From NCBI GenBank assembly GCA_017506865.1, contig JAFCMP010000518.1:62001-126000 (forward strand): 64,000 nt of DNA, in the 5' to 3' direction. This DNA comes from Tribonema minus (Eukaryota > Sar > Xanthophyceae > Tribonematales > Tribonemataceae). The position numbers were made by a program, and so were the translations under genes. Positions 1 through 61,287 of this stretch are shown piece by piece; within the stretch, counting starts at the first letter, position 1, and each line of letters opens with the position of its first letter. The notes under the pieces were generated by a model, which was not told the origin of the DNA, did not search any database, and worked only from the letters and a program-made list of their open reading frames with translations.

Positions 1-2402
1 CCTCGACCACTATGACTGGAACCTCACTCCAGATGACGAGCGGCTCAGATATTTCCTGGACCGTGATTTTTCAATTGAGGGGGACTCTGCCGATGCAGGT
101 GGCACCTCTACCCAGTCTATTAGAGGTGTGGCCAGCACGATTGTTAGGTCGCTTTGGACGGCCTCTATAGTGCTCGGGCGCGAGCCCCACCCACTGAGTG
201 CCATACGCCCCCTCATGGCAAAGGTCCTGGAGTGGATGGTGCTCGTCAAGGGCCACGGTGTGCCGGAGGACCTGCTGTCGGGGACCCGCATCGTCCCCCC
301 CCTCAACTATGCTGACCTGGCGATGGACGCTGACGCATTCAAGCCATGCAAGAAGTACACATTCCTGGCGTCCATCACAGAAGATGCCTTCTTCTCCGAT
401 ATAGTCATCCCTAAAGCATTTATTGTGATGCGGGCACTTCGTGTGGCTGTGGAACAAGCCATAGAGGGTATGAACAGGAATGACATGTGCCGGCAGATAT
501 TTGAGGCAACGAGCGAAAACACCACTGCAGGTTTCAACAGCAACCTCGCATCGGTATTTGGCGCCATCAAGAGGAGCGGAGCGGAGCGGTACAGGCCAGA
601 TGCGATGGACATCGCAGCAATACGTGCGTACCTACCATCCGCAGACCTGGCTTGGCTCGATACATCAGGGCAAGCGCTGACATACTCAGTGAACAAGTTC
701 ATAGACACGTTCAGGGAAGCGTTTCTCACCACACGAAGGCGGCTGAGGGCGGTTGTCACTGTCAGCCGTGCGCTGGACAGGGGAGGCCTGAAGGCTAAGA
801 AGGCCTGAGGATGACGGTCTTCGTGACATGATGCGGGCCCTCCGCAAGCAGATATGGAGCCGCGTGTGGCAGTCAATCATCGCCCCCTGGCTGCGCGCTC
901 ACGATAGACCGCAGGAGCGACAGTCCTTCCTGAACACCAACGCATCTGACATCCGCTCCGCTCATCCGCGACCCTGAACCCAAAAAGCAACCGAGCACTT
1001 ATGCTAAAGTGAGGTAAGTCAAGACACTCAAACTGTTGAAGTTTGATAATACTACTAGTAGGTTGTTGGCCTCACTCAGACGCACCAGAAGAGCTGTTGG
1101 TTGTTGAAGTTGAGACGGGTGGAGCCGTGCTATTGCACGTTGAGCAGTGATATGACAGTTGAAGTTAGCATGAAGTTGAAGTATGAATATCACCGTTGAA
1201 GTACAATATCACATCAGGATCAACATCAACTTCAACAAGTGAGTAGTCAGCAGATGCCCCTGACATAGGGCTACAGCATGCCATAACCCAACTTCAACAC
1301 CAGTTCTGCCCTGGAGACTTCACTACAGCATAAGTGCTCGGTTGCTTTTTGGGTTTCAGGGTCGCGGATGAGCGGAGCGGATCCTGTCACTGACTCAGCA
1401 GCAGGCGAGGGGAATATCGTCAAGTTTGCAGACAGCAAGGGTTTCACCAGGTACGATGCAGAGAGAGTTCAGCTCCTGCTGATGCTTCACTTATCATGCC
1501 TCAGGTCGCAGGTGTGGCGTGACTCTGTCATAGAGGAGTATGAGCTCGGCGACCGCAAAGGCAAGCTGTTCTACACGGTCCACATGACTCGAGCTTTCAG
1601 GACGGCTTCATGCCAGGACGAAGGGATGCCAAGCTTGCGAGATGGGATTTGTCCGGGACGGAGAGGGCATTTGTGCACTGCGTGCTGCTGTTGTGCAGTC
1701 CGATGCTCGCCACAGGCGCCAAGAGTACAGCACGCATGTTTGTAGACGCTGCCGGCGCTCCCGTCACACAGCACTGGATTGAGACCAAGGTTGGAGAGGT
1801 GGGAAAGGAATGGCTCGGTGCGCCAAGGCTCGGACCTCATTCACTTCGCACCATGTGGCTCTCGTGGATGATCAACGGCGGTCTCATAACAGAGGCAGAC
1901 TTCGACAGCCTCGCCTCCTACGTCCACGTGTCGAGGGCAACAATGCTTGAGTCATACATCACTCCCAGTCACTACGGCCCTGCACAGCGCATTGGGCAGC
2001 TGATGAGGGATGAAGGGCTCAACTCTCACGTGCCCCCGCCTACAGCACCTGCAAGAGGGCGCGGACAATTGCTCGGAACAAGGTGAGGAGTGTGACACAT
2101 CTGTTGCAGACACGGCGTCCACAGCTGCTGCGTCCGACATGCCGGAGGAGGAGATGGAAGGAGGGGGTGGGGAGCGGCAAAGCCATACGGCAAGGCTCTG
2201 CACACGAAACGCAATGCATACGTTGACAACATCACGCTTGCGGTTGGGGCGTACAATAGCGACGCGAAGCAAGCGTTTAATGCCTTGGTCTCAAAGCGCA
2301 AGCGTGGCGAGCTGAGCGCCCATGAGAAATGGTTCAGGGAGGACGCGACTTTCTTCAAAGACTTAGACCTCCCTGCGTTCGAGAAGATGTGCTCGAAGTT
2401 AA
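1..2402 (+). pseudogene. Tyrosine recombinase pseudogene, copy 1 (5' end outside window)
   Basis: A broken copy of the intact recombinase gene at 45,533-48,046. Position 2 aligns with codon 183 of that gene, so the first 182 codons lie outside the window. The frame is open from 2 to 808; a loss of about 20 bases relative to the intact copy then shifts the frame to a stop. A 0.43-kb inverted-repeat element interrupts it at 951-1386. Further frameshifts lie near 1,625 and 2,060, and the last homologous codons (2,285-2,402) match the end of the intact protein. The recombinase box survives: a PHSLR segment near 1,840 and the candidate nucleophile in LESYITP near 1,955. The catalytic residues therefore persist while the frame does not. 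It is a decayed transposon gene and cannot encode the full protein as read. Confidence 0.85.
951..1386. mobile_element. MITE-like element with ~67-bp terminal inverted repeats, copy 1
   Basis: The ends are inverted copies of each other: one starts ATCCGCTCCGCTCATCCGCG and the other ends in its reverse complement at 1,363-1,382. The interior carries many TTGAAGTT/AACTTCAA motifs and no convincing gene; the small minus-strand frame at 999-1,193 recurs in the second copy only because the sequences are homologous. It lies inside the recombinase pseudogene between stretches that are contiguous in the intact copy, which proves insertion. The target duplication is not clear: TGAC flanks the left end and recurs shortly after the right end. 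CAG...CTG termini could suggest hAT, but without a clean 8-bp duplication I leave the superfamily open. Confidence 0.85.
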
Positions 2403-32334: not shown

Positions 32335-34984
32335 AATACAGTTGAAGTTGTGCTTATTCGATGTTCTTGAAGTTCATTCAGGTGTTTTGGCCAGACTAAA
32401 TGGAGATTCAGCCCCGGAGATTGGTGGAAAAATATAGGTTCGCGCAACTAAAGCAGTTCAATACATAATCTCGAACTTCAGCATGCTCATTGCCAGTGAT
32501 CACAGTCACGACGAAATCTGCAAGAGTATAAGAGCAAGCAGGCAAGCGCCTAGCATGTCCAAGAGCTCAGGAATGACATTTGTGTTCAATGACTCACCGT
32601 CAGGCCAAGTGAGGGCCAATGCTGAAGCCACCATGAAGAAAAGTAGCCGCTTCAGCCCCAGCTCTGTCAATGAGCTGGCGTCTTGGGTTCCAAGTGGCAC
32701 AACCTACGCCTAAAATGATCAAGACGAGCATCACAAAAGCATGGTCAAGGAGGCAAACGTCTGCGATATCATAAGAGAGGCGGTGGCTGCGGATACGCCA
32801 CCTCCAACAACGGCACAGCGCAGCGACATGTTCACAACTCTAGGTGAGGAGGCGAAGCATTTGTGGTGTATTTGGGTTGCTTCCCTTCATGCAGCTGTGG
32901 CATATGCGCTTTGGACGGTCCTTGTACCATACTTTAGGCCAGAACGGTCGAAAGTGGGCAACAGATTGCAAGGTACGCATACTTAGCCATTACGGCAGCT
33001 ATGGCGTCAGACTATGTCAGCAGAGCACCCAAGGATATCCTGCCTCTCGATCACTACGACTGGAACCTCACCTCAGCTGATGTGAGGCTCTGTTACTCAA
33101 CTATTTCTTGGTTGAGGGGCGACCATGCTAGAGCAGGTGGCATGTCTACGCAGTCCATCCGGGGTGTAGCAAGCACTGTCAGTGTATCAATGTGGACGGC
33201 CACAAAAGTGCTCAGGCGCGAACGTCATCCGCTCGGTGCCATTCGCTTTCTCACTGCTAAGGAGCGGATGGGGCTTGTCCTTGGACATGTCGTGCTGGAG
33301 GATATGCTGTCGGGACCCGCATCGCCCCCCCGCTCAACTACGCTGAGTTGGCGTCGGACGCCGACACGTTCAAGCTATGCAAGGAGTACATTTTCCTTGC
33401 TCCATTACAGAAGACGCCTCCTTCTCCGACCTATTCATTGTCAGAGCACTCTTTTTGATGCGCGCGCGCCGGGTGGCCGAGGAGTGCACTACGGAGGGGT
33501 GAACTGAGAAGGACTTTACCGGCAGGTATTCGAGGCAACAAAAACACGACCGCCGGCTTCAACATTGACCTCGTATCAGGGTTTGGCGCCGTCAAGAGGA
33601 GCGGAGCGGAGCGGCACATGCCGATGTGATGGACATAGCAGCAACACATGCCCACATGCGCTCTGCAGACCAGGTGTGGCAAATCAGGGCAATCACATAC
33701 ATACTCGGTCCAAAAGTTTATTTGACACTTTCAGGGACGCAATTCTCACCATCGGAGGCGGCTGAGGGCGGACGTCGCTGTCAGCCGTGCCCTGGACAGC
33801 GGAGTCCTGAAATCGATGAAAGCTGCAGGTCGCCTCTGTGACATCGAGGATGACGGCCTGCGCGACATGATGCAAGCTCTCCTGCAGCAGATATGGAGCC
33901 GCGAGTGGAAATTAGTCATCGACCCTAGGCTGAGTATGCATGGCATACCGCAGCAGGCACAGTCGTTTCTGATGCGACAGCAGCGGACGAGGGGGGAATC
34001 GTCATGTTTGCAGACAGCAAGTCATGCACAAGGTACAATGCAGAGAAAATTCAGCTCCTCTGATGTTTCACTTCTCATGGATCGGGTCACAGGTGTGGCG
34101 TCATAGAGGAGTACAAACTTAGCAAACGTGAAGACAAGGTGTTTGACACGCTTTACATAACGCGAGCTTTCAATACGGCCTCATGCCAAGACGACAGACT
34201 TCCACATCTCGCAACATGGGAGCTGTCCGAGACGGAGAGCACAATAGTGCACTGCGTGTTGCTGTTGTGCAGGCCGAAGCTCGGCACAGGCGCCAAGAGC
34301 ACAACACTCACGTTTATCGATGCTTCTGGAGCTCCTATCACACAGCGCTGGATTGAAACCAAGATGGCACAGCTCGATGAGGAATGGTTAGGATTTTCAA
34401 GACAAGGGCCGCACGCTCTGTGCCTGTGGCTCTCGTGGATGGCGAACAGCGGATTGGAACAGCATTCGGGTGACAAGAGGCAGGGTTTGACAGTGTGGCG
34501 GCATATTCAGGTTTCAAGGTGCTCGTTGTGGGAGCGTTACATAACACATAGCCACAATGGGCCGGCAAAGCGCGTCGGTAAGATGTTGCGAGACGGATGG
34601 GTTAACACTCACGTCCCTTCGCCTCCAGCACCTGCAACGGGTGCTGATAGTTTATCATGTTTTGCACGAAGCAGAGGACGGCGAGTGCAATACTTCTAGC
34701 GCAGCTACAGCATCAACAGCTGCTGCATCCGGCACGACAGACAACCTAGAACCTGAATGCGCCAAGATGCCGTACAAAAAAGGCATCGGGCCTTAAGCGC
34801 AAGGCTTACAGAGACAACATCGTGGTCGCGGTGCAAGCACATGGCGGCGGCGATGTGAAGTGCGCATTTGACACGCTTGCCACCAAACGCCACCTTGGCC
34901 AGCTCAGCGCTCAAAAGCAGCGGTTTCGATATGATGTCACGTTCTTCAAGGCACTGACCTCAAGGAAAAGCTGCATAAAATGAT
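32335..34984 (+). pseudogene. Tyrosine recombinase pseudogene, copy 2
   Basis: Homologous to the intact gene at 45,533-48,046 including at least 150 bases of 5' flank (GGAGATTC...CTCAGCATG/CTTCAGCATG). The equivalent start is at 32,555 (MSKSSGMTFVFND). A stop follows at 32,711, and many frameshifts break the rest; readable pieces lie at 32,741-32,986, 33,001-33,280, 33,565-33,680 and 34,139-34,699. In the catalytic box the intact PHSLRTMW has become PHALCLW: one codon is lost and the catalytic Arg position is no longer Arg, while the candidate nucleophile in WERYITHSHNG remains. This is the oldest-looking of the three copies. Confidence 0.85.
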
Positions 34985-38900: not shown

Positions 38901-40480
38901 TCACATATCACCTAACACCTACTGCACTTAACGACCCCTTTTACATCTTCAAGCGGCTATGGCCTAACACTTCCACCTGCCAACATCATCACTGCTGCAT
39001 ATCCCCCAACGCCCACTGCGCCTAACGACTAGGCGCAAGTTTCACACACACTCGCCCCCTTGAATATGAACAAAGATAGAAAGCCAGTGCGTAATGAGTA
39101 ATCACATAGAATAAGCTTGACTCTCAGCTGGTCTCAATCTTGTGATTCTGCAATAACTGATTGAAAATTTGCACAGATCACATGAAACCTCAATTTGAAA
39201 AAAAACATTGAGATCGAATCATGTAGGGGAAGCTTCTACCTCTCTTAGTCTGATCTCGCCTTCCTTAAGTAGTTTTCTGCAATAATTAATTACAAGTTAC
39301 AAAAATCTAGCGAGCGTCGTACCTGCCCCATTTAGGGTAGGGTCAGCCTCTGAGAAATGATGTTCAGGCAGACACACAGGCTGAGAAAGCCGCACCTACT
39401 TCAATAGGCACAAAAGTTTAATCGCCACTAGGCACAAGATTAGTGCGCACTTGCCACCATACATCTGAACCCGGCCAGGAATACCACTTTCAGCTGCCAA
39501 CACCATCACTATCACAATTCACCTGGCACCTACTGCGCCTAACAACTTGGCGCAAGTTTAGTGCACACTCGCCCCCTTACGCCTGAACCTGGCTAGGTCT
39601 AACACTGCTAGTAGCCAAACACTATCACTGTCACATATCACTTACAACCCACTGCGCCTAACGACTAGGCGGAAGTGAAGTGCACAATCACCCCCTTACA
39701 TCTTAACCTGGCTAGGCCTAACACTTTCAGCTGCCATCACATATCACCTAACACTCAGCCTCTGATAAATACTTGTTTACATAGGCTGAGAAAGTTGCGC
39801 CTGCTTCAATAGGCACAAAATTCACCTGATAGGCCTACCGCGCCAAACGACTACGCGCAAGTACAGTGTGCACTTGGCACCATACTTCCAAGTACATCTG
39901 AACCCGGCTAGGAATACCACTTTCAGCTGCCAACATCATCACCATCACAATTCACCTGGCACCTACTGCGCCTAACGACTAGGCGCAAGTTTAGTGCACA
40001 CTCGCCCCCTTACATCTGAACCTGGCTAGGTCTAACACTAGCAGCCAAACACCATCACTGTCACATATCACCTACAACCCACTGCGCCTGATGACTAGGC
40101 TCGAGTTCATTGCACAATCACCCGCTTACCTCATAACCTGGCTAGGCCTAACACTTTCAGCTGCCATCATATATCACCTTGCACCTACTGCGCTTATCAA
40201 CCCCTTTTACATCTTCAAGCAGCTATGGCCTAACACTTCCACCTGCCAACATCATCACTGTTGCATATCCCCCAACGCCTACTGCGCCTGACGACTAGGT
40301 GCAAGTTTCGCACACACTCGCCCCCTTGAATATGAATGAAGATAGAAAGCCAGTACGTAATGAGTACTCACATAGGGGAAGCTTGACTCTCAGCCGGTCT
40401 CGATCTCGTGATTCTGCAGTAATTGATTGCATTAAAATTGCACAGATCACATGAAACCTCAATTTGAAAAACAACAAATA
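35936..40480 (-). repeat. Higher-order satellite array with hairpin motif
   Basis: A complex array of about 4.5 kb. The segment GAGATCGAATCATGTAGG or a variant lies near 36,112, 36,990, 37,492, 38,380 and 39,209, giving higher-order periods of about 0.83-0.89 kb with one shorter unit. Within each unit are 4-5 sub-units of about 90-120 bases. Most contain an inverted repeat, TGCGCCTA-ACGAC-TAGGCGCA, perfect at 36,792, 37,976, 38,699, 38,817, 39,017 and 39,967, with at least seven near copies. Each unit also has the shared core GCGAGCGTCGTACCTGCCCC (near 36,245, 37,088, 37,614, 38,480, 39,311), reversed relative to the block on its left. It ends abruptly in CTG-rich DNA at 40,480. Confidence 0.9.
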
Positions 40481-41030
40481 TTGAGATACTCGGCGGCGCT
40501 TTCACTGCTGTTGCTGCTGCTACTGCTTCTGGCGCTGCTGCTGCTGTTGCTTCTGCTGCTATATCCTGTGCAGGCTGTCTGCTGCTGCTGGCGATCGTCG
40601 TCCATGACTTGGTTCCCCTCTGCCACGACGCTGATGAGCGCTGCTGCTGCTGCAGGTTCTCTGTGTTGCAGCGCGCTGCTGCTGAGCACTAGTAAGTTTT
40701 ACCAAAATTCGGGTCGCGCTGCCAGGATGTGAGGTTTCAGTTGAGCTTGTGGCACAGGGCTAAGCCAAGCCTCTGTTAGAGCAGTACTGCGCAATCCGCC
40801 GACGGCGGAGCGTCAGGCGTCTGATATATTAGGCCAGAGGTGGTTTTTAGGTACTTGGACGCCCGGATTCATATTTTGCGCCTTCTTGTTTGGGGGGGTT
40901 CATAGCAAGCTCTTGACCTTCACAAGCTAATCTGAGTCGCCATCTCCCACGGCAGGCAAGGCATTTTTCCTTCCGTTTATGTCGTACAGGTAGCAATGTC
41001 ATGGTGTAGCTGGGCGCACAATTTTAATCA
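40481..41030. repeat. CTG-rich segment and unassigned DNA
   Basis: The first 200 bases are rich in CTG/TGCTGCTG words; the remainder has no gene. The CTG part replaces the expected continuation of the satellite unit, so the array was cut here by an insertion or rearrangement. The CAG/CTG-plus-coding order that follows resembles the start of the 23.9-kb copy of the two-copy family. Confidence 0.5.
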
Positions 41031-41790
41031 GCATAACAGCAGCAGCACAGGCATGGGCCGCCGGCAACGTGCCCTGCTTCGAGGATGATGTCCCTGTGGT
41101 TCAACGCATCAAGTTCCTGAGCTGCAAGCTGCCTGGCAGCAGCGCTGAGTACCAGGGTGTGCGTCAAATGGTACTTCATTGCCATGAATGGCACGACAGC
41201 GAAACAGTCTTCAATGGTCGTCGACCGCACACACGACGCGATAGACTCGTACCAGCGCGAAGTTATTTGCCAGCACATGTCGCTGAGCCGCAGACGCCGC
41301 GACAGGCCAGATGCAGGTTGCCGCGGCTACTGTGACGTGCTGCCCCATGCGACCGAAGTGGACAGAAGCCAGCTGCCAACACTACGGAGCGGAACGGCAC
41401 AGCACTTGGAGTCGCACCGGCAGCTGTTCCGGTTCCCACGGTCGAAATCAGCGGGCAGCAGGTGAGAGCTTTGTGGCCTTCAGCTTCACTGGACAACTGC
41501 CCCGTCCGTAGCTATGTTGACCGAACACTGCCGTCACCCATGCTTGCATGAGCATGAACTTGCTGGAGTACGTTACTGTTGCTGGCGTGCATCACTTTGT
41601 ACTGCGGAGCTGCTGCAGCACCATTCAGAGAGCATCTAACATATAAAATTAAAAAGCTTTTGCCCTGACACTTGATGCAGATGCCACGGGACACAATTTT
41701 CGCCACTCTAGTCGATGACGCTTGACGGGCCAGTATCGGCACCTCACTAAAACAATGATACACCACCAATTTCGAATAGCGTGCAAGTGC
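41031..41790 (+). pseudogene. Two-copy coding family, copy 2
   Basis: Homologous to 23,960-24,630. Starts after a short CAG run with a frame reading FEDDVPVVQRIKFLSCKLPG and MVLHCHEWHDSETVFN. It then shifts to VDRTHDAIDSYQREVICQHM, which matches the 24.1-kb copy. The shared ATGCCACGGGA segment at 41,689 corresponds to 24,576. At least one frameshift separates the first two pieces and stops follow near 41,730, so this copy is decayed. Comparison of the two copies supports that the VDRTHDAIDSY frame is coding. Confidence 0.5.
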
Positions 41791-41919
41791 AAGGTGCCAG
41801 TGCAATGCTCTGTGGTATTGATGTTGTTTGCATGTATGCAAAGACCACCACATGTCAGACTACAGTAACCTTACGGATGATGAAGTTGCTACAATTATGG
41901 CCTTCTTCAATGCAGTCAT

Positions 41920-42130
41920 TTGATAGCACTTGCAGACCTTGGTGCCATTGAAGGCGTACGATAAGAACTTGGATGGCACTGTAGATGCCTCGGAGAACGC
42001 AGAGTGTAGCGCACTATGGAATGCGGTTTCCCCTTCTCAGGATAGTGATGGCAGTGGTGCATTGAAGCTCATGAGTTGCTGGTGTACAATGCGCGTGTCA
42101 AAAGCGGAGAGTTGTGACATACTGAGCCTG
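41920..42130 (+). pseudogene. EF-hand exon fragment
   Basis: After an acceptor (GATAGCACTTGCAG, exon from about 41,936) the frame encodes LKAYDKNLDGTVDASENAE, whose DKNLDGTVDASE matches a complete calcium-binding EF-hand loop with acidic or polar ligands at 1, 3, 5, 9 and 12. A second loop begins DSDGSGALKLM, but position 12 falls on Ser, and a Glu followed by LLVYN appears only one frame over, so a small indel has damaged it. The pairing and spacing of two loops is typical of calmodulin-like proteins. No other exons were found, so this is probably a captured or broken exon. Confidence 0.55.
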
Positions 42131-42879
42131 CCGCCAAGCAGCAAACGATCCAGTCAATTGACACAGTGCCTCCACAGCAGCAGCAGTAGCAATCACCAGA
42201 CATGTGAACAGCAGGCGGAGCAGGGTAACAGTAGCACCAGCTCAGCTGGGGCGGAGACAGGACAAAGGCTGAGTGCTATTCTTGTGAAGGTGCACATCAT
42301 GCTGCGAGTGAGAGGACATGAAGCTGCTGGTGACAAACCACTCATCTCAAGTGTTGCACACTGCCCTTGACACGCATCTGGAACCCTCTGCGACGCCTTC
42401 AAACTTGTGTCTGCCTCTCGCCTTGCTCAGTCATTCTTGATGGCATCTGCACGCGGAGCAGCATAGGTTTGGTGATAAAGTGTTGGGTCAACAGTCGTTT
42501 TAGCATGAGGCGTTGCAGTGTGCTCCTACTTGCATTGTGTCATTGTGCTCGTGCGTGTCCGAGAGGCACCAAATGCTGATGTCCTGTGTGCCCGCCCCCA
42601 AATGTGTGCCCGCCTCACATAGCATGCCCGCCACAAAATGTTTGTCCCTCCCCACCTCATGCATGCTTTCAAGTTGTTAATGCAGCGCTCGGTGCATCTG
42701 ACCGGCGAGCACCAGTAGCAGGTGCCGCGTGTGAGCACTGGCCGACTGGGGGCAACAATACTAAAACAGCAGTGTAACAGTTCTGCAAGAAACTGTTCAT
42801 AGCAGCGTGGGCACTTGGTGTGCCTCTATCACTGCAAGCTTTGCCTGGAATGTGCGTTGGCTCCAGACTGGTGGAGTCT
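42131..42879. other. No recognised gene; small CCCGCC-type repeat
   Basis: A short run at 42,585-42,660 repeats TGTGCCCGCC, CATGCCCGCC and TTTGTCCCTCC-like words at about 24-base spacing. The rest is unassigned. Confidence 0.4.
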
Positions 42880-45300
42880 AAGGATGACGTTGTATTGTTT
42901 CTTATAAGTCAGCATGACATTCTGGCTAAGAGAGGTTCAAGCTTTGACAGCATCAGTAGTCACCATGCTGAGTCTTGTGCACCCCAGACTCTGCAGGCGC
43001 AAGTAGGTGATCAGAAGTGTAGGTGAGATCAGCGTTAGAGAGGTTCAAGCATCCAGCACTAGCAGAGACCATACTAAGCCTGAGAGCACAAAGTTGAACT
43101 CATGCTGAAACTTGAAGTTCCTAAGGCTGGACCTGTCTAGAAAAGAGTTCATGAAGTGTAAACTGATCAGAAGTTTAGGTGAGGTCAGGCTAAGAGATAT
43201 TCAATCTATCCCTACATGAGCAGTCGCCATACTCAGCCTTACAGCACAAACTTGAACTTTGGCACACACTTGAAGTTCCTGAGGCTGGGCCTGTCGAAAA
43301 AAAGTATTTCTCAGAGGCTGACCCTAAATGGGGTTGGTACGACGCTCGCTAGATTTTCGTAACCTGCCAATAAATAGGGCTGCTGATCAGAAGTGTAGGT
43401 GAGATCAGTGTAAGAGAGCTTCAAGCGTCCCCAGCGCTAGCAGAGGCCATACTAAGGCTTAAAGCACAAATGGGGTTGGTACGACGCTCGCTAGATTTTC
43501 GTAACCTGCCAACAAATAGGGCTGCTGATCAGAAGTGTAGGTGAGATCAGTGTAAGAGAGCTTCAAGCGTCCCCAGCATTAGCAGAGGCCATACTAAGGC
43601 TTAAAGCACAAAGTTGAACTTGTGTTGAAATTGAAGTTCTTGAGGCTGGGCCTGTCGAGAAAAGAGTTCATAAAGCGTAAACAATTGTGGCTCATGATCG
43701 AAAGTGAGGGGGAGGTCAGGCTAAGAGAGATTCAATCTATCCCTACATGAGCAGTCACCATACTCAGCCTTACAGCACAAACTTGAGCTTTGGCACACAC
43801 TTGAAGTTCCTGAGGCTGGGCCTGTAAGAAACAAGTATTTCTCAGAGGCTGACCCTAAATGGGGTTGGTATGACGCTCACTAGATTTTCGTAACCTGCCA
43901 ATAAATAGGGCTCCTGATCAGAAGTGTAGGTGAGATCAGGGTGAGAGAGCTTCAAGCATCCCCAGCATTAGCAGAGGCCATACTAAGCCTGAGATCACAC
44001 ACTTGAAATTATGCTAAAGTTGAAGTTTCAGAGGCTGGGCCTGTCGAGAAAAGATGTCACAGAGTGTAAATAATTATGGCACATGATGATCGAAGATGAG
44101 GAGGAGGTCAGGCTAAGAGAGGTTCAATCTATCCCTACATCAGCAGTCACCATACTCAGCTTTACAGCAAACACTTCAACTTTGGCAGAGGCCATACTAA
44201 GGCTTAGAGCACAAAGTTGACCTTGCGTTGAAATTGAAGTTCTTGAGGCTGGGCCTGTCGAGAAAAGGGTTCATGACGTGTAAACAATTGTGGCTCATGA
44301 TCGAAAGTGAGGGGGAGGTCAGGCTAAGAGAGGTTCAATCTATCTCTACAGCAGCAGCAGCAGTCACCATACTCAGCCTTACAGCACAAACTTAGACTTT
44401 AGCACACACTTGAACTTCCTAAGGCTGGGCCTGTCAAGAAGAGGGTTCATAAAGTGTAAATAATTGTGGCTCATGATCGAAAGTGAGGGGGAGGTCAGGC
44501 TAAGAGAGGTCCAACATATCCCTACACGAGCAGTCACCACACTCAGCCTTACAGCACACACTTGAACTTTTGAGCACACTTGAAGTTCCAGAGGGTGGGC
44601 CTGTCGAAAAAAGTATTCTTCAGAGGCTGACCCTGAATGACGTTGGTACGACGCTCGCTAGATTTTCGTAACCTGCAAATAAATAGGGCTCCTGATCAGA
44701 AGTGTAGGTGATAGCAGTGTAAGAGAGCTTCAAGCGTTCCCAGCATTAGCAGAGGCCATACTTAGCCTTAGATCACACACTTGAGCTTATGCTGAAGTTT
44801 CAGAGGCTGGGCCTGTCGAGAAAAGAGTTCGCAAAGTGTAAATAATTATGGCTCATGATCGAAAGTGAGGGGGAGGTCAGGCTAAGAGAGGTTCAATCTA
44901 TCCCCACATCAGTAGTCACCGTACTGAAATCAGTGTTAAGAGGCGGTTCAAGCCGTCCCTGCATGAGTGCTTGCCATGCTAACTAAGCCTTAAATCACAC
45001 ACTTGAACTATGCTAAAGTTGACCTTCCCAAGGCTGGGCATGTCGAGAAACATGTTAATGAAGGGTCAATAATCATGGCTCAGGATTGAAAGTGTGGTGA
45101 CTATGGCCCCCACACCAGTGCCCCCGTACTAAGCCTCACTGTGTGCAGGTAATACTTCAGGGACGCTTGAAGTACCCAAGCCTGGTTGCGTCGAAGGAGG
45201 CTGACCCTATATGAGGCAGGTTCGATGCTCATCATTTGAAACTTCCAATAACTATTACACCACATCGTATGTGAAATGAGGCTGAGAGAGGTTCCAACTT
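42880..45300 (+). repeat. Left arm array of the recombinase element
   Basis: Tandem units of about 388 bases, or multiples, beginning CTGATCAGAAGTGTAGGTGA near 43,383, 43,526, 43,915 and 44,692. Each unit has AAGTGAGGGGGAGGTCAGGC, AGTCACCATACTCAGCCTTA, CTTGAAGTTCCTGAGGCTGG and the shared core GACCCTAAATGGGGTTGGTA followed by CGACGCTCGCT (near 43,319, 43,852, 44,630, decayed at 45,202). The same words run in reverse complement at 48,791-50,210 on the other side of the intact recombinase gene. Similarity fades towards the gene. Confidence 0.9.
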
Positions 45301-45532
45301 CTCCTGCATTTGCGTACCCACCATGTGCATGTTGAAGTTGTACTTTTTGGATGCTCTTCAAGTTCATGAGGTGTTATTATGGAGATTCGGCACCAAGATT
45401 CAGCAATAAATGCTGAATTGCGCAATTAAAACAGACTGGCAAATAATCCCCGAATCTCAGCATGTTCATTCCCTGTGATCACAATCACAACCAAACCCGC
45501 AAGCACACTGACAACAGCAGTCCAAGCACACC

Positions 45533-48046
45533 ATGTCCAAGAACTCTGGGATCACCTGTTTGGCCAATGACTCCGCTTCCGGCCAAGTGCTCAGGTCAGC
45601 TGCCGCCGCTGCCGAAGCCTCCGTAACAAAAAGCAACCGCTTCAGCCCCTGCTCCGTCACCGAGTTGACTTCTTGGGTGGGGAGCGGCACCTACGCATAC
45701 AGCGATCAAGACGAGCGTCACAAGGGCATGGTCCGGGAGGCGTACTGGTGCAATGTGATACGAGAGGTAATTGCTGCAGAAACACCACCCCCAACATCTG
45801 CACAGGGCAGCGAGATATTCAACAACCTAGGTGAGGACGCGAAGGACAAATGGTGCACACACCTTGGCACAATGCATGCAGTAATGGCATATGCACTGTG
45901 GACGATACTCGTGCCTTTCTATATTGCAGAGAGGTCGAAAATGGGCAACAGATCCCACCACTGGCGCCCTCTTGAACCTGATGCGACGTTGCGCAAGGAA
46001 CGCATGCAGGCATACACGGTCCTCAAGGCAGCAATGGCGTCAGACTATGTGAAGCGAGCACCCGCAGACGTCCTCCTCCTCGATCACTATGACTGGAACC
46101 TCACACAAGATGACGAGCGGCTCAGGTATTTCCTCGACAGAGATTTCTCAGTGGAGGGGGACTCTGCCGAAGCAGGTGGCACATTTACCCAGTCTATCAG
46201 AGGTGTGGCCAGCACCTTTGTTAGGTCCTTGTGGACGGCATGTGTAGTGCTCGGGCGCGAGCCCCACCCTCTCAGTGCGATCCGCCCGCTCACTGCAAAG
46301 GAGTGGATGGTGCTTGTCAAGGGCCACGGCGTGCCCGAGGACCTGCTGTCGGGGACACGCATCATCCCCCCCATCAACTATGCAGACCTGGCCACTGACG
46401 CTGACACATTCAAGCCATGCAAGGAGTACACATTCCTTTGTTCAATAACAGAAGATGCCTTCTTCTCCGACATATTCATCCCGAGAGCATTCTTCCTGAT
46501 GCGCGCACTGCGGGTTGCAGAGGAGTGCACTACGGATGGGGTGAACAGAGATGAGCTTCTCAGGAAAGTGTTCGACTCGACGAGCGAGAACACAACAGCA
46601 GGATTTTCTAATAATGTCGCATCGGTATTTGGCGCCATCAAGAGGAGCGGAGCGGAGCGGTACAAGCCAGATGCGATGGACATTGCAGCGATCCGCGCCT
46701 ACATGCCGTCGGCAGACCTGGACTGGCTCGACACATCAGGACAAGCGCTGACTTACTCGGTGAACAAGTTCATCGATGCCTTCAGGGATACTTTTCTCAC
46801 CACGCGGAGGCAGATGAGGGCGGATGTCACAGTCAGCCGCGCACTGGACAGGGGAGGACTGAAATCGAAGAAGGCTGCAGGTCGCATCCCTGACGCTGAA
46901 GACGACAGCCTTCGCGACATGATGCGGGCGCTCCGCAAGCAGACATGGAGCCGCGTGTGGTGGTCAATCATCGCCCCCTGGCTGCGCGCTCACGATGTAC
47001 CGCAGGAGCTGCAGTCCTTCCTGAACACCAGTGCATCGGCAGCAGAGGAGGGGGATATCGTCAAATTTGCAGACAGCAAGGGGTTCACCAGGTATGACGC
47101 GGAGAGAGTGCAGCTCCTGCTGATGCTTCACTTGTCATGCCTCAGATCGCAGGTGTGGCGCGACTCTGTCATCGAGGAATATGAACTCAGCAAGCGCGAC
47201 GGCAAGGTGTTCTACACGCTCCATATGACGCGAGCTTTCAAGACGGCTTCATGCAAGGACAAAGGGCTGCCACAGCTCGCAAAGTGGGAGCTATCCGAGG
47301 TGGAGAGCGTACTGGTTCACTGTGTTTTGCTATTGTGCAGGCCAATGCTCGCCACAGGGGCCAAGACCACAGCCCACATGTTCCTGAACGCTGCTGGCGC
47401 TCCCGTCACACAACGCTGGATCAAAACCAAGGTGGGAGAGGTGGGAAAGGAATGGCTGGGAGTGCCAAGGCTCGGACCTCACTCACTTCGGACCATGTGG
47501 CTCTCGTGGATGATCAACGGCGGTCACATAACAGAGGCAGACTTCGAAAGCCTCGCTTCCTACGTCCAAGTGTCGCGCTGCACAATGTTGGAGAGTTATG
47601 TGACTCCTAGTCACAACGGCCCTGCACAGCGCGTCGGGCAGCTGATGAGGGATGGTGGGCTCAATGCTCACGTGCCCCCGCCTACAGCACCTGCAAAGGG
47701 TGAGGATGAGTGCTCGGAGCAGGACATTGAGTGTGACACCTCCATCGCAGACACAGCGTCTACAGCTGCTGCATCGGACACAACAGACGAGATGGACGGA
47801 GAGGGTGGGGAGGAGAGCGGGGGACGCCCATACGGGAAAGCTCTCGGCTTAAAGCGCAAGGCTTACAAGGATAACATCATGCAAGCGGTGCAAGCATATG
47901 GCGGAGATGCTAAGAATGCATTTGACGCCTTGGTCAGAAAGCGCAAGCATGGCTCGTTGAGCGCCAAGGAGCAGTGGTTTAGGGAGGATGTAACGTTCTT
48001 CAGAGACGTAGACCTCCCTACCTTCAAGAAATTGTGCACAAAGTGA
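45533..48046 (+). CDS. Intact tyrosine recombinase of a Crypton-like or related DNA transposon
   Basis: One uninterrupted frame of 837 codons from the ATG at 45,533; the same start context is kept in the copy at 32,555. The C-terminal half holds a tyrosine recombinase domain: an Arg in LSCLRSQVWRDSV (R538, or R543), PHSLRTMWLSW with H650 and R653, and the presumed nucleophile Y689 in LESYVTP. Such enzymes break and rejoin DNA through a covalent phosphotyrosine and move Cryptons, DIRS and similar elements. No reverse transcriptase accompanies it, which argues against DIRS. The N-terminal about 500 residues show no recognised domain. After the catalytic domain come an acidic Ser/Thr/Glu-rich linker (about 725-765) and a Lys-rich tail with KRKHGSLSAKEQWFREDVTF. 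The gene sits between inverted arrays. TGTAA lies about 75 bases after the stop. Fungal Starship captains are a distant analogy only. Confidence 0.85.
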   Translation: MSKNSGITCLANDSASGQVLRSAAAAAEASVTKSNRFSPCSVTELTSWVGSGTYAYSDQDERHKGMVREAYWCNVIREVIAAETPPPTSAQGSEIFNNLGEDAKDKWCTHLGTMHAVMAYALWTILVPFYIAERSKMGNRSHHWRPLEPDATLRKERMQAYTVLKAAMASDYVKRAPADVLLLDHYDWNLTQDDERLRYFLDRDFSVEGDSAEAGGTFTQSIRGVASTFVRSLWTACVVLGREPHPLSAIRPLTAKEWMVLVKGHGVPEDLLSGTRIIPPINYADLATDADTFKPCKEYTFLCSITEDAFFSDIFIPRAFFLMRALRVAEECTTDGVNRDELLRKVFDSTSENTTAGFSNNVASVFGAIKRSGAERYKPDAMDIAAIRAYMPSADLDWLDTSGQALTYSVNKFIDAFRDTFLTTRRQMRADVTVSRALDRGGLKSKKAAGRIPDAEDDSLRDMMRALRKQTWSRVWWSIIAPWLRAHDVPQELQSFLNTSASAAEEGDIVKFADSKGFTRYDAERVQLLLMLHLSCLRSQVWRDSVIEEYELSKRDGKVFYTLHMTRAFKTASCKDKGLPQLAKWELSEVESVLVHCVLLLCRPMLATGAKTTAHMFLNAAGAPVTQRWIKTKVGEVGKEWLGVPRLGPHSLRTMWLSWMINGGHITEADFESLASYVQVSRCTMLESYVTPSHNGPAQRVGQLMRDGGLNAHVPPPTAPAKGEDECSEQDIECDTSIADTASTAAASDTTDEMDGEGGEESGGRPYGKALGLKRKAYKDNIMQAVQAYGGDAKNAFDALVRKRKHGSLSAKEQWFREDVTFFRDVDLPTFKKLCTK

Positions 48047-48119
48047 GAGTGTTCTACATTCAATGTCCAAATTCTGGTGTGTGTGCCCAAGTCTCTTCTT
48101 TCTACTTGTTTTTGTTGAT

Positions 48120-48124
48120 TGTAA
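48120..48124 (+). terminator. TGTAA polyadenylation signal of the recombinase gene
   Basis: TGTAA in TTGATTGTAATGC, about 75 bases after the stop. This pentamer is the usual 3'-end signal of chlorophyte nuclear genes; its placement is consistent but a single pentamer is weak evidence. Confidence 0.45.
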
Positions 48125-48354
48125 TGCACAATGGTTTGCAAGGTGTAGTCAATCGCATGCTACATATATGTTTGGCAATTGCACTTTCATGACCAGGCCA
48201 CACTGCCATGATGTTTTAGTAATGCCTTGCTGCTCTGAGATTATGTCTCATGGCATACCTTGCACTCTTTGCATCCTTCACACTTGATGTGACTGAGCTG
48301 CGCATCGCTCATAACCCTGCACCAACAAATGTAACACACAGGGAGTTGTCAAAA

Positions 48355-48790
48355 ACGCGAAGAATGCATATAAAAGTCGAAGAGGTGGGTGCAACACCAG
48401 CAGCAGATATGTGTTGCATGTGTTATGTCAGCAGATCATATGTATCACGAATGCACATAAAGTCATGGAGGCAGATGCTTAAGCCGGCAGCAAGGATGCT
48501 TTCAATGTGCCATGTCAGGAGGCCGCAGGTTTGAGGAGGGTGAGGCATCAAATGCATCTATGATGTCAACACAGGGTGGGTTATCAACCGTATCAAGAAT
48601 GTACATAAATTGAAGGTGCAATGTCAGTGCTCTCTATGTGCTGTGTCAGGATGTCAAAAGTTTGAGGAGGATGAGTCACACAAGCATCCATTAGGTCAAT
48701 ACAGCGTATATGATCAATCTCAAGAAGAATGTGATAACAGGCAAGGAGGTGGGTGCAAAGCCAGCAGCAGAGGGATAAGTGCAAGTTTAC
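48355..48790 (+). repeat. Diverged ~120-bp repeats 3' of the recombinase gene
   Basis: AAGAATGCATATAAA or variants recur near 48,360, 48,447, 48,594 and 48,725. GTTTGAGGAGGGTGAG recurs near 48,530 and 48,660, and GGAGGTGGGTGCAA with CCAGCAGCAGA near 48,380 and 48,745. The block lies between the gene and the right arm array. Confidence 0.6.
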
Positions 48791-50210
48791 GCTAAAGGCC
48801 GAGTATGGTGAGTACTCATGTAGGGATAGATTGAAACTGCTCATGCAGGGATAGATTGAACCTCTCTTAACCTGCCCTCCCCCTCACTTTCGATCATGAG
48901 CCAAAATTATCAACACTTGATGAACTCTTTCCTCGACAGGTCCAGCCTCAAGAAGTAAGTTCAACTTTGTGCTCTTAGCATTAGTATGGCCTCTGCTAAT
49001 GCTGGAGACGCTTGAACTCTCTTACACTGATCTCACCTACACTTCTGATCAGCAGCACTATTTATTTGCAGGTTACGAAAATCTAGCGAGCGTCGTACCG
49101 ACCCCATTTAGGGTCAGCCTCTGAGAAATACTTTTTTCGACAGGCCCAGCCTTAGGAACTTCAAGTGTGCTCGGAAGTTCAAGTGTGTGCTTGAAGGCTG
49201 AGTATGGAGACTGCTCATGTCGGGATAGATTGAACCTCACTTAGCCTGACCTCCCCCTCACTTTCGATCATGAGCCACAATTATTTACACTTTATGAACC
49301 CTTTTCTCGACAGGCCCAGCCTCAAGAACTTCAAGTCTTCAAAGTACAAGTTTGAGCACAAAGGCTGAGTATGGCAACTGCTCATGTAGGGATAGATTGA
49401 ACCTCTCTTTGCCTGACCGCACCTCACTTTCGATCATGAGGCATAATTTATTTGCATTCTTCTTTCGACAGGCCCAGCCTCAGGAACTTCAAGTCCAAAA
49501 AGCTCAAGTTTGAGCACAAAGGCCTGGGATGGCGACTGCTCATGTATGGATAGATTGAACCTCACTTAGCCTGACCTCCCCCTCACTTTCGATCATGAGC
49601 CACAATTATTAACACTTTATGAACCCTTTTCTCGACAGGCCCAGCCTCAAGAACTTCAATTCTCAATTAAGTTCAACTGTGCGCTCCAAGGCTTAGTATG
49701 GCCTCTGCTGATGCTGGGGATGATTGAACATCCCTTACACTGATTTCACCTACACTTCTGATCAGGAGCCATATTTATTTGCAGGTTACGAAAATCTAGC
49801 GAGCGTCGTACTGACCCCATTTAGGGTCAGCCTCTTGAAAATACTTTTTTCAACACGCCCAGCCTCAGGAACTTCAAGTCTTCAAAGTTCAAGTTTGAGC
49901 TGTAAGGCTGAGCATGGTGACTGCTCATGTAGGGATAGATTGAACCCCGCTTAGCCTGACCGCACCTCACTTTCGATCATGAGGCACAATTATTTACACT
50001 TTATGAACTCTTCTTTCGACAGGCCCAGCCTCAGGAACTTCAAGTCCACAAAGTTTAAATTTGAGCACAAAGGCCTGGTATGGTGAGTACTCATGTAGGC
50101 ACAGCCTGAACCTCTAAGAGCCTGACATCACCTACACTTTCGATGCTGGACCATAATTATTTGCACTTAACAAAAACCTAGTGAGCATCGGACCGCGTCA
50201 GCAACTTTTA
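48791..50210 (-). repeat. Right arm array of the recombinase element (inverted)
   Basis: Reverse-complement counterparts of the left arm: TCACTTTCGATCATGAGCC, GGGATAGATTGAACCTC, GACAGGCCCAGCCTCAGGAA and the core GCGAGCGTCGTACCGACCCC followed by ATTTAGGGTCAGCCT (near 49,088 and 49,800). Core spacing is about 0.71 kb. The arm ends close to 50,210, about 430 bases before the probable start of the helicase gene. With the left arm it forms a long, imperfect inverted repeat around the recombinase gene. Confidence 0.9.
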
Positions 50211-50638
50211 AGTTTCAGCATAAGTTCGAATTCATGCCACAGGGCCGCAAATGGCGACTGAGTGACAGGTGCTAGACTCTCACCATATTGCCGTACCTTA
50301 GATGTCCATTCTTCAACACTTCAAACTGCTGCAATTTTCAGCTAAAACTTCCGTAGTGCTGCTGCTGCATCGGCGCAGTGTCATCGCTGTCTGCCACTGT
50401 ACGAGCTTGGCGCCAGTCCATGCCCTGTGTGGCACACATGTTGCGGTTATGCAGTTGTTACAATAGGTCAGATGTTGGCTGCATGTATTCGAAATCATGT
50501 TCAGATTTATATTTTTTTACAAGCCAATCGAGCATGATTTTAAATACATGTGGATATCAGATACTGAACAAAATATTGAGCCTCACACAACTGGCAACTG
50601 GCGACTGTACCTCACAACCTCGCACGGCCATTATCAGT

Positions 50639-53234: not shown

Positions 53235-53350
53235 ATTGCAATACATTGGACCTGTGGTGTATTGTTTGTTATCGCTTTTTACCATGCAAGACTGTGAACA
53301 TACACATTGTGGGGGCCTCGTTGCCGCCAGTAGCGTCTACGCTCAGTAGC

Positions 53351-54435
53351 ACGCAGCAGCAGCAGAAGCTTCAGGAGGCGAAGTATTGAAATTTTTCTCT
53401 CACAGGCAGGTTAGTGGAGGCGAGAGTGTAGCTCACCTGCAGCGTTATTGCTGTCGTTACCGCCCTCAGAGTCTCCACGAATGGCACGCAGCAGCAGCAG
53501 AAGCTTCAGGAGGCGAAGTATTGACATTTTTCTCTCACAGGCAGGATAGTGGAGGCGACATTATAGCTCGCCAGTAGCGTTATTGGTGTCGTTACCGCCC
53601 GCAAAGTCTCCATGAGTGGCACGCAGCAGCATCAGAAGCTTCAGGAGGCGAAGTATTGACATTTATCTCTCACAGGCAGGATAGTGGACGCGAGATTATC
53701 GCTCACCTGCAGCGTTATTGGTGTCGTTACCACTCGCAGCGTCTACATGAGTAGCACGCAGCAGCAGCAGAAGCTTCAAGAGGCGACTTATTCACGTTTT
53801 TCCACTTCGCCAGATCGCAGAGGAGGTGAAATACTAGCTCACCTGCAGCGTTATTGGTGTCGTTACCGCCCGCAGCGTCTCCAGAAGTAGCACGCAGCAG
53901 CAGCAGAAGCTTCAGGAGGCAACTTATTCACGTTTTTCCACTTCGCCAGACCGCAGAGGAGGCGAAATACTAGCTCACCTGCAGCGTTATTGGTGTCGTT
54001 ACCGCCCTCAGAGTCTCCATGAGTGGCACGCAGCACCAGCAGAAGCTGCAGGAGGCGACTTATTCACATTTTTCCACTTCGCAAAATCGCAGAGGAGGCG
54101 AAGTACTAGCTCACCTGCAGCGTTATTGGTGTCGTTACCGCCCTCAGAGTCTCCATGAGTGGCACGCAGCACCAGCAGAAGCTGCAGGAGGCGACTTATT
54201 CACATTTTTCCACTTCGCAAAATCGCAGAGGAGGCGAAGTACTAGCTCACCTGCAGCGTTATTGGTGTCGTTACCGCCCTCAGAGTCTCCATGAGTGACA
54301 CGCAGCACCAGCAGAAGCTGCAGGGGGCGACCTATTCACATTTATCCACTTCGCAAAATCGCAGAGGAGGCGATTTTATCGGCTCACCTGCAGCGTTCTT
54401 CACCTCCTTAACGCCCCCAGCAACTAGGTCCGATC
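53351..54435 (+). repeat. 135-bp minisatellite, eight units
   Basis: ACGCAGCAG or ACGCAGCACC starts units at 53,351, 53,486, 53,621, 53,756, 53,892, 54,028, 54,163 and 54,300, a period of 135-137 bases. Each unit has GAAGCTTCAGGAGGCGA or a variant, a T-rich TTTTTCCACTTC stretch, CTCACCTGCAGCGTTATTGG and TGTCGTTACCGCCC. Units at 54,028 and 54,163 are nearly identical, showing recent duplication. Because 135 is a multiple of three, open frames run through several units, but there is no start or terminator context that supports a gene. Confidence 0.95.
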
Positions 54436-54696
54436 CCTCGCAAGTTCATAAGTTTTATTGCAAAAGCAATCAATAACTTATTGCAGCCTCCCTGCAGTCC
54501 CAGCTCTGGCTAGGCTCCGGCACAAAACCTGTTTTTTTTCCACCCAGTTCCTTTTTTTTTTCCTGCTCAAAAGTGACCCAAATCCTGAAAAAAATCCTGT
54601 TTTTCCTGCTACTGAAAACTGCCCTACCAGCCCCCCAACAGCCCCCCAGGTGCTTGTAAAAAATATGCAAAGTGACCGGTTCAGATCTAGCATATA
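54436..54696. other. Short spacer between minisatellite and LINE
   Basis: Contains T and A homopolymers (54,532-54,560, 54,588-54,605) and GTTTTATTGCAAAAGCAATC, an inverted repeat of TTGC/GCAA type resembling the 3' end of a transcript in reverse. The junction to the truncated LINE is at about 54,696, where AGGGCACGC is the first base match with the full-length copy. Confidence 0.45.
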
Positions 54697-55722: not shown

Positions 55723-55786
55723 GGCCTCCACGAGATGCGGATAGGTATGTAGCTGTAGCATGTAGCACCATGGCGTAGCAGAGATC

Positions 55787-61084: not shown

Positions 61085-61287
61085 GGGAGGACCCCGAGAT
61101 GCCATTTGGCGGCGGCGGCGTTTGAGTGGTTGTCGTTGCGACACTTTCAGACTGTCATACGACATGTAGATTCCTTACAGCTAGATGCCAATCATCTGGG
61201 CTTTTTCGCGCCCTGAGCGAGAATTAATAAAAAGTACAAGCACATAACACAAGCACATAACACAAGCACATGTACAAGCACATAAAC

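What the first reader, a model, noticed from the sequence alone, without database searches (positions are those of the whole stretch)
42880..50210. Intact tyrosine recombinase gene inside a long inverted repeat made of tandem arrays
The 837-codon recombinase at 45,533-48,046 lies between two arrays that share words and a 35-45-base core but run in opposite directions (42,880-45,300 and 48,791-50,210). Cryptons normally have no terminal inverted repeats, and DIRS-like elements with inverted termini carry a reverse transcriptase, which is absent here. Arms built from degenerate tandem units are not a layout I know for any described recombinase transposon. It may be a new type of element, or an element inserted into a palindromic satellite.
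Basis: partly seen in the sequence, partly recalled or inferred. Interest (0 to 1): 0.85.

Follow-up and report, generated by a model that had tools for sequence, protein, structure and literature searches.

The report
Recombinase gene bracketed by inverted arrays

Summary
An intact 837-aa gene (45,533-48,046) lies between two tandem arrays in opposite orientation (42,904-45,325 and 48,781-50,230; 1,441 collinear columns at 80%). The protein is a diverged tyrosine recombinase (conserved R-K-HxxR-Y; weak Phage_integrase and XerC matches; Cre tops the fold search). The genome, almost certainly Tribonema minus, gives 75 matches. Of the 17 best loci, 16 carry the upstream array and at least 11 an inverted downstream array. 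So arms and gene travel together, but the arms are not the ends: matching sequence continues 0.3-2.2 kb outside the left arm at 15 other gene-bearing loci. The same arrays (units about 90% identical) bracket a second recombinase family with almost no sequence similarity to the first. Its left end is a fixed sequence outside the arrays, with no terminal inverted repeat seen. Eleven divergent relatives show no such arrays within the 1.5-kb flanks held. Best reading: Crypton-like tyrosine-recombinase DNA elements in which a repeat-array module, probably a set of protein-binding sites, was acquired and exchanged as inverted blocks around the recombinase gene. Mechanism untested.

The parts
45533..48046 (+). 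Intact tyrosine-recombinase-like gene, YR1 (837 aa, P0001)
42904..45325 (+). Left array (armL): degenerate tandem units, core spacing mostly 142-220 bp, + orientation; ends about 200 bp before the ATG
48781..50230 (-). Right array (armR): same units, inverted; starts about 735 bp after the stop codon
43340..43367 (+). Conserved 28-bp box, exact (others + at 43482, 43871, 44649; - at 49068, 49781 and, outside the arms, 37071, 38462, 39292)
   Evidence: 430 genome matches at 3 mismatches or fewer, reversed-pattern control 0
40600..42850 (+). Left region outside armL; 0.3-2.2 kb of it found next to the outer side of the left array at 15 other gene-bearing loci
41852..42290 (+). Frame-broken remnant of a small upstream gene that is open (91 aa) in the C90 copy; two EF-hand-like loops by eye only, no Pfam match
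50231..50638 (+). 5' region of the helicase gene, conserved at about 66% downstream of recombinase relatives on C532 and C190
50639..53164 (+). SF2 helicase with Helicase-associated (HA) domain (likely start at the ATG 50,639); only its 5' part co-occurs with other copies
32341..34948 (+). Broken related recombinase copy (copy B), about 70% nt identity
35063..40487 (.). Arm-type units (35.06-35.79 kb +; 36.2-39.4 kb -) interleaved with 116-119-bp tandem repeats, downstream of copy B
1..2399 (+). Broken recombinase copy (copy A), cut by the window edge and by an insertion of about 440 bp; its left array lies outside the window

Best explanation
What it is: one copy of a multi-gene DNA element that moves by a tyrosine recombinase (Crypton-like in what it works like, not shown to be a Crypton). 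SHOWN: the recombinase gene is open in several copies, with third-position-biased differences. It is bracketed by two inverted tandem arrays that sit between it and its neighbours: a small gene on the left, and a helicase 5' region on the right in the window. The same arrays bracket a second recombinase family with almost no sequence similarity, whose left terminus is a fixed sequence outside the arrays. The gene has the same orientation relative to the left region in 16 of 16 copies. INFERRED: the recombinase joins short sequences at the outer ends, excises or integrates the element through a circle, and the arrays are not the crossover sites. The arrays are most likely multi-copy binding sites for one DNA-binding factor (element-coded or host). 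That factor would control the genes on either side and perhaps bridge the two arrays, as multimerised sites are thought to do in Galileo. Array units are homogenised within an array by unequal exchange, and the module has passed between recombinase families by recombination.
For: Recombinase: R538, K570, H650, R653 and Y689 are invariant or nearly so in the 10- and 12-member alignments. Phage_integrase matches 7 of 10 members weakly, best E 0.0022; XerC matches at E 0.0044. The domain model has low confidence (pLDDT 52) but Foldseek ranks 1-16 are all tyrosine recombinases, Cre first at E 3.9e-3. Copies and selection: 75 matches in the genome, 6 open over 1-837, two of these identical over 5.5 kb. 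Against copies L002, L003 and L004, third-position differences exceed first and second (71 v 24/29; 148 v 47/44; 166 v 60/50). Arms travel. Arms are internal. Second recombinase between the same arms; a further diverged one beside them. Units are 94% identical within an array, 90% between the two arms of one element and 88% between elements. YR1-v-YR2 units average 90%, as close as YR1-v-YR1 at 87%, while the proteins share only a short HxxR stretch. No inversion of the cassette: 16 of 16, not all independent.
Against: No transposition, circle or transcript was seen. The outer ends of the YR1 element itself were not found. The right end of the YR2 element rests on two loci with 64-78% identity. 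No flanking direct repeats were recognised. The protein model is poor: no Foldseek match reaches E 0.001 and the TM-scores of ranks 1-16 are 0.23-0.43. The YR1-YR2 profile match is only 7% probability. The H/W residue usual nine positions before the tyrosine (recalled) is not at that place in YR1. The left region also occurs at three places without a YR1 match nearby (C507:678 kb, C466, C112:1,674 kb). The 28-bp box has no significant dyad and no unusual fold, so a classical recombinase or dimer site is not supported. The binding-site role is inference from conservation alone.
Confidence: 0.6

Rival explanations
1. Foldback-type transposon: the arrays are the terminal inverted repeats, and the recombinase is the cargo or transposase between them.
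For: Long inverted arms built of tandem units are the foldback/Galileo/Tetris layout. Arms accompany the gene at many loci.
Against: Matching sequence continues outside armL at 15 other gene-bearing loci in fixed order. YR2-type elements begin at a fixed sequence well outside the arms. No DDE transposase family was found in the intact recombinase and helicase ORFs.
Confidence: 0.1
2. FLP/2-micron-like flip system: the recombinase acts on sites in the inverted arms to invert its own segment and drive amplification.
For: A tyrosine recombinase gene between long inverted repeats with a strongly conserved 28-bp box.
Against: 16 of 16 copies keep the same orientation relative to the left region. 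The box dyad is not significant. Two very different recombinases share the same arrays.
Confidence: 0.12
3. The arrays are a host or subtelomeric satellite that these elements prefer as a landing site.
For: Five of 31 exact-box clusters have no recombinase match within 20 kb, and several copies lie near contig ends. Eleven divergent relatives lack the arrays in the flanks held.
Against: Arrays are inverted about the gene, and the left region precedes the gene in the same orientation in 16 of 16. The nearest unit outside its own array is on the same side for 54 of 65 units (left 44 of 45, right 10 of 20); shuffled array labels reach that in 30 of 2000.
Confidence: 0.13
4. The arrays are ordinary promoter/enhancer repeats of a multi-gene element and have nothing to do with recombination.
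For: One array lies directly upstream of YR1, one directly upstream of the helicase, and another directly upstream of a second helicase copy at C179:623 kb in the same relative orientation. In YR2 the array lies between upstream exons and the main exons.
Against: No transcript data. The YR1 array is in the opposite orientation, relative to its gene, from the helicase arrays, so no single promoter polarity fits.
Confidence: 0.35

Closest known systems
Crypton (CryptonS/F/A/I) tyrosine-recombinase DNA transposons
   Same: Tyrosine recombinase without reverse transcriptase; no terminal inverted repeat seen at the YR2 ends; stramenopile hosts are known (PMC3212892, passages read).
   Different: Internal inverted tandem arrays, neighbouring genes, larger span (C179 YR2 element about 27 kb with an insertion); no match to a Crypton-type Pfam model.
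Foldback, Galileo and Tetris transposons
   Same: Long inverted arms made of tandem units. In Galileo these carry several transposase-domain binding sites; in Tetris about 220-bp units seed satellites (abstracts read).
   Different: There the arms are terminal, and Galileo is a P-element relative; here the arms are internal and the enzyme is a tyrosine recombinase.
Tec1/Tec2/Tec3 elements of Euplotes crassus
   Same: Eukaryotic elements with a tyrosine recombinase (PMC3212892). That Tec elements also have long inverted repeats is recalled; the Tec3 paper is not held.
   Different: PMC3212892 says Tec1/Tec2 also carry a DDE transposase; none was found in the intact recombinase and helicase ORFs here.
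Starships (fungal captains)
   Same: Large elements with other genes and a tyrosine recombinase (search listings only).
   Different: No DUF3435 match; fungal hosts; internal inverted arrays are not mentioned in the listings seen.
Phaeovirus/xanthovirus integrases in Xanthophyceae
   Same: A 2026 paper (PMC13236599, passages read) reports phaeovirus-like tyrosine recombinases in Tribonema.
   Different: No relative of YR1 was found among viral contigs. The viral proteins themselves were not compared here.
DIRS/Ngaro/PAT retrotransposons
   Same: Tyrosine recombinase; DIRS has inverted termini (recalled).
   Different: No reverse transcriptase in the recombinase or helicase ORFs; the RT ORF at 55.8-61.1 kb looks like a separate element.

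Membership tests
Tyrosine recombinase superfamily | Conserved R..K..HxxR..Y residues and YR fold | tested here: met
   R538, K570, H650, R653, Y689 conserved; PF00589 weak in 7 of 10; Foldseek ranks 1-16 all tyrosine recombinases, but on a low-confidence model and none below E 0.001. The usual H/W before the Tyr (recalled) was not found.
Crypton | YR gene, no RT, no terminal inverted repeats | tested here: inconclusive
   No RT in the YR1 or helicase ORFs; no terminal inverted repeat seen at the YR2 ends; YR1 ends not found.
Crypton | Short (4-6 bp) direct repeats at the two ends | tested here: inconclusive
   YR2 left ends at 3 loci and right ends at 2 were read; no convincing repeat by eye; no empty site available.
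Crypton/Starship | Match to Crypton- or captain-type Pfam models (DUF3504, DUF3435) | tested here: not met
   None among the matches to E 10 for 10 members; HMMER's filters drop most matches above about 0.1.
DIRS/Ngaro | Reverse transcriptase and RNase H in the same element | tested here: not met
   Of the 7 ORFs scanned the only RT is at 55,787-61,084, with its own 1-kb 99.4% repeat pair. It was not checked whether it follows other YR1 copies.
Foldback/Galileo | The inverted arrays are the element ends | tested here: not met
   Matching sequence continues outside the left arm; YR2 terminus outside the arms.
Tec | DDE transposase beside the YR (Tec1/Tec2) | tested here: not met
   No DDE match in the intact ORFs 45.5-53.2 kb. 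The DDE protein in the C179 YR2 element lies in a stretch with no match to the C182 element sequence read.
General satellite | Occurs widely without the gene | tested here: not met
   26 of 31 exact-box clusters within 20 kb of a recombinase match; only 100 of 430 places were listed.
Phaeovirus-type provirus | Viral relatives or core viral genes around the recombinase | tested here: inconclusive
   No relative in viral contigs, none with the box core; phaeoviral integrases were not compared.

The most novel reading that the evidence does not exclude
These are a new class of eukaryotic tyrosine-recombinase elements defined by an exchangeable, non-coding array module. At least two recombinase lineages with almost no detectable sequence similarity have converged on, or traded, the same inverted arrays around their recombinase gene, because the arrays do an essential job: assembling a shared replication, expression or synapsis complex on both sides of the recombinase gene. 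The non-coding module, rather than the enzyme, would be the conserved core of the element.
Probability: 0.3. Interest if true: 0.78.

Novelty: new variant of a known kind. Interest (0 to 1): 0.6.

Why it matters
Tyrosine-recombinase DNA elements are among the least understood eukaryotic mobile elements, and their ends and cofactors are mostly unknown. Here non-coding arrays are better conserved between two recombinase families than the enzymes themselves. That points to a shared factor and gives a concrete handle: a 28-bp box with 430 near-matches, an intact gene in several copies, and a candidate terminus. It can be tested in an alga with a sequenced genome, and it bears on how foldback-like arms and satellites arise in elements of quite different enzymology.

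Tried and rejected
Arms as element termini: rejected. Box as a palindromic recombinase site: best dyads are matched in 241-295 of 300 shuffles, rejected as evidence. Box or unit as a DNA hairpin: z -0.16, -1.08, 0.45. RNA family: none at gathering score in 28-54.5 kb. Cassette inversion: none in 16 copies. Helicase as an obligate partner: only its 5' part co-occurs. Structure of the whole protein: pLDDT 45.5, not used. PDB sequence searches: nothing relevant. Small left protein as EF-hand: by eye only, no Pfam match at E 0.1. Fixed YR1 left end at window 41,800 (where the C90 match starts): not accepted, because C90 and C179 share further sequence to the left of it. C33 arm pair: the 4 kb read shows no match to P0001, P0028 or P0031.
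Full report
WHERE WE ARE. The window is C515:62,001-126,000 of a 158-Mb, 554-contig genome. Annotated Tribonema minus proteins sit on contigs of the same lengths (for example P0005 on a 782,867-base contig, the length of C515), and P0005 consists largely of stretches that read the same as the window gene's product by eye. The organism is therefore almost certainly Tribonema minus, a xanthophyte alga.

THE OBSERVATION. The 837-aa ORF is at 45,533-48,046. The flanking arrays are real tandem arrays of degenerate units with core spacings mostly of 142-220 bp. They are inverted relative to each other: 43,478-44,916 matches the complement of 50,194-48,836 at 80% over 1,441 columns, with no match in direct orientation. 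Shuffled arms reach at most 25.6 bits in 20 trials, against 1,287 observed. Because the two arms mostly differ by 10-20%, they are unlikely to be a fold-back assembly artefact (inference).

THE ENZYME. Pfam at E 0.001 finds nothing. Aligned relatives keep R538, K570, H650, R653 and Y689, invariant or nearly so. PF00589 matches 7 of 10 members weakly, best E 0.0022, and XerC matches 602-662 at E 0.0044. AlphaFold models are poor (pLDDT 45.5 and 52.1). Foldseek with the domain model ranks tyrosine recombinases at 1-16 (Cre, phage-type integrases, Tn1549, XerA/D/H); the best is E 3.9e-3, none reaches 0.001, and TM-scores are low. The usual histidine or tryptophan nine residues before the tyrosine (recalled) is not seen. 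I treat it as a diverged tyrosine recombinase (YR1). The relatives found were from Tribonema minus, this genome, and four proteins of other jgi/lgn contigs (P0006, P0008, P0014, P0020). None was found in viral contigs.

COPIES AND SELECTION. A six-frame search gives 75 matches, a lower bound. Six loci are open over residues 1-837 (C515, C90, C179, C109, C282, C522); C109 and C282 are identical over the 5,511 bases held, and L010, L011, L016 and L017 are 98-99.9% alike, so some are allelic or recent duplicates. Differences from L002, L003 and L004 fall mostly at third codon positions (71 v 24/29; 148 v 47/44; 166 v 60/50).

DO THE ARMS TRAVEL? Thirty loci with up to 1.5 kb of flank were held. 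Among the 17 best (L001-L017, the window included), 16 carry armL-type sequence upstream of the gene; L015 does not and its match is 5'-truncated there. Eight carry an inverted array within the held downstream flank. The genome-wide arm search shows inverted arrays further downstream for L003, L012 and L014, making at least 11 of 17. These counts include the duplicates named above. Of 11 divergent loci (L018-L021, L023-L029) none has arm sequence and none has an array-like inverted pair across the match (L020 has an unrelated 474-bp inverted pair). Some of these are truncated, so part of the flank is gene. Five of the 11 have other internal direct repeats over 100 bp upstream. L022 and L030 are two parts of one disrupted close copy on C312 and have an array on one side and a short match on the other. 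Among the 100 exact box matches listed (of 430), 26 of 31 clusters lie within 20 kb of a recombinase match; five do not: C15, two on C33, C65:138 kb and C179:624 kb, the last beside a helicase gene.

THE ARMS ARE INTERNAL. Window 40,600-42,850, outside armL, matches sequence at 15 other loci that also have a YR1 gene, over 0.3 kb (C434) to 2.2 kb (C182, C268, C187). In 16 of 16 (window and duplicates included) it has the gene's orientation and lies upstream. It also occurs at three places without a YR1 match nearby (C507:678 kb, C466, C112:1,674 kb). In C90 this region holds an open 91-aa gene just left of the array; the window copy is frame-broken. It looks like an EF-hand protein by eye only. 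On the right, 50,231-50,638 and the N-terminal part of the helicase gene recur at about 66% identity on C532 and C190, which carry recombinase relatives about 8 and 17 kb away. The helicase body does not follow the recombinase in general. Larger collinearity exists: window 31,086-48,127, including the broken copy B and the 118-bp arrays, matches C268:774,147-792,138 in the same order, mostly at 82-92%, with short gaps and one 71% piece. C90 is a mosaic: its gene is 95% identical at nucleotide level, but its left region is only 72-79%.

A SECOND RECOMBINASE BETWEEN THE SAME ARMS. Arm pairs without a YR1 match on C179 (26.6-46 kb) and C182 (9.3-28 kb) enclose a different protein, YR2 (P0022/P0023; fuller gene models P0027, P0028, P0031). 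Its arginine-box and GPYSIRN sequences resemble the recombinase motifs by eye; Pfam finds no family in P0027, P0028 and P0031. YR1 and YR2 are nearly unrelated by sequence: BLASTP E 0.039-0.13 for P0001 against P0031, P0027 and P0028 over 27-38 residues, 0.002 for the best pair of any members; profile probability 7% over the HxxR stretch. In six YR2 loci the array lies between exons matching residues 71-233 and those matching 232 onward (C64, C507, C179, C182, C109, C516), so it is either intergenic or intronic. C90:661-665 kb encodes a further diverged YR2-like gene beside the same arrays. Yet array units of YR1 and YR2 elements average 90% identity, as close as YR1-YR1 at 87%. The module has therefore been exchanged between recombinase families, or is held by strong common constraint.

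A CANDIDATE TERMINUS. Left flanks of three YR2 loci become similar at the same base, (T)GAYCTTTTGTCAAAGTTGA, with unrelated sequence outside. The motif occurs exactly at 13 places. In 8 of 13 a YR2-family match follows in the same orientation, its first listed match 2.5-5.6 kb away. The other five were not examined. A shared right end on C179 and C182 lies about 1.2 and 2.7 kb beyond the right array; it is supported by two loci and 64-78% identity only. No reverse-complement copy of the left end was seen at the right side in the loci held. Neither terminus was found for YR1.

THE ARRAY MODULE. Units are 94% identical within an array, 90% between the arms of one element and 88% between elements. 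The nearest unit outside its own array is on the same side for 54 of 65 units (53, by the breaking of ties): 44 of 45 left units but only 10 of 20 right units. Shuffling the side labels of the 16 arrays gives a mean of 31 and reaches 54 in 30 of 2000. So left arms keep their identity and right arms do so less clearly. The best conserved piece is the 28-bp box with its near flanks. It has 430 genome matches at 3 mismatches or fewer, against 0 for the reversed pattern. It has no significant dyad or fold. An array also sits directly upstream of another helicase gene at C179:623 kb, oriented relative to that gene as armR is to the window helicase. The 24-bp core of the box was not found in the viral or prokaryotic collections.

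HOW IT PROBABLY WORKS. Shown: gene, arms and left region form one repeated unit, and the cassette is not flipped in 16 of 16. Inferred: the recombinase moves the whole element by recombination at short outer ends, as proposed for Cryptons (PMC3212892, passages read). The arrays are accessory binding-site clusters serving expression, replication or bridging. The best precedent is Galileo, whose long repetitive arms hold several transposase-domain binding sites (abstract). I cannot separate a regulatory from a synaptic role.

KNOWN OR NEW. A search of the open-access library for Tribonema minus with tyrosine recombinase returned two papers: one on Ectocarpus transposable elements (passages read) and one on endogenous giant viruses, which mentions phaeovirus-like recombinases in Tribonema (passages read). 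In the passages shown neither describes this element. The Tec3 paper, the most relevant to check, is not held. I call it a new variant of a known kind.

Noticed in passing
window 54,696-61,244: A 1,765-aa ORF with a reverse-transcriptase domain and a 1-kb direct repeat pair (54,696-55,695 / 60,246-61,244, 99.4%): probably a recent separate retroelement beside a truncated copy of its 3' end.
   Followed up: partly
L040:5305-9150 (C179:35.5-39.3 kb): Inside the C179 YR2 element, on the minus strand, an 864-aa protein with a weak Cas12f1-like TNB match (E 0.036; Fanzor-like by eye) next to a DDE transposase (PF01609, E 2e-14); no match to this stretch in the C182 element sequence read.
   Followed up: partly
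window 951-1,386 and 4,363-4,796: Inverted pair of about 430 bp at 94.5% identity; the first copy interrupts the broken recombinase copy A, so it looks like a MITE-type insertion.
   Followed up: no
window 53,345-54,397: A 136-bp tandem array (7.8 copies, 90% matches) between the helicase and the retroelement; part of it also occurs at L042:7795-8450 (C179:730 kb).
   Followed up: no
window 62,555-63,352: Fragment with a hAT dimerisation domain match (PF05699, E 8e-6).
   Followed up: no
C33:42-70 kb (L055): An arm pair about 26 kb apart with no recombinase match; the 4 kb read inside holds a 594-aa open frame without a significant Pfam family. Possible cargo between the arrays.
   Followed up: partly
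L020 flanks (C536:150-154 kb): A 474-bp inverted pair at 98% identity across a truncated recombinase copy, unrelated to the arms.
   Followed up: no
annotated Tribonema minus models P0005, P0011, P0029: Public gene models appear to cut the intact window gene as if spliced (P0005), to fuse a RING-finger sequence to a recombinase copy (P0011) or CHRD repeats to a YR2 copy (P0029): probable annotation errors.
   Followed up: no
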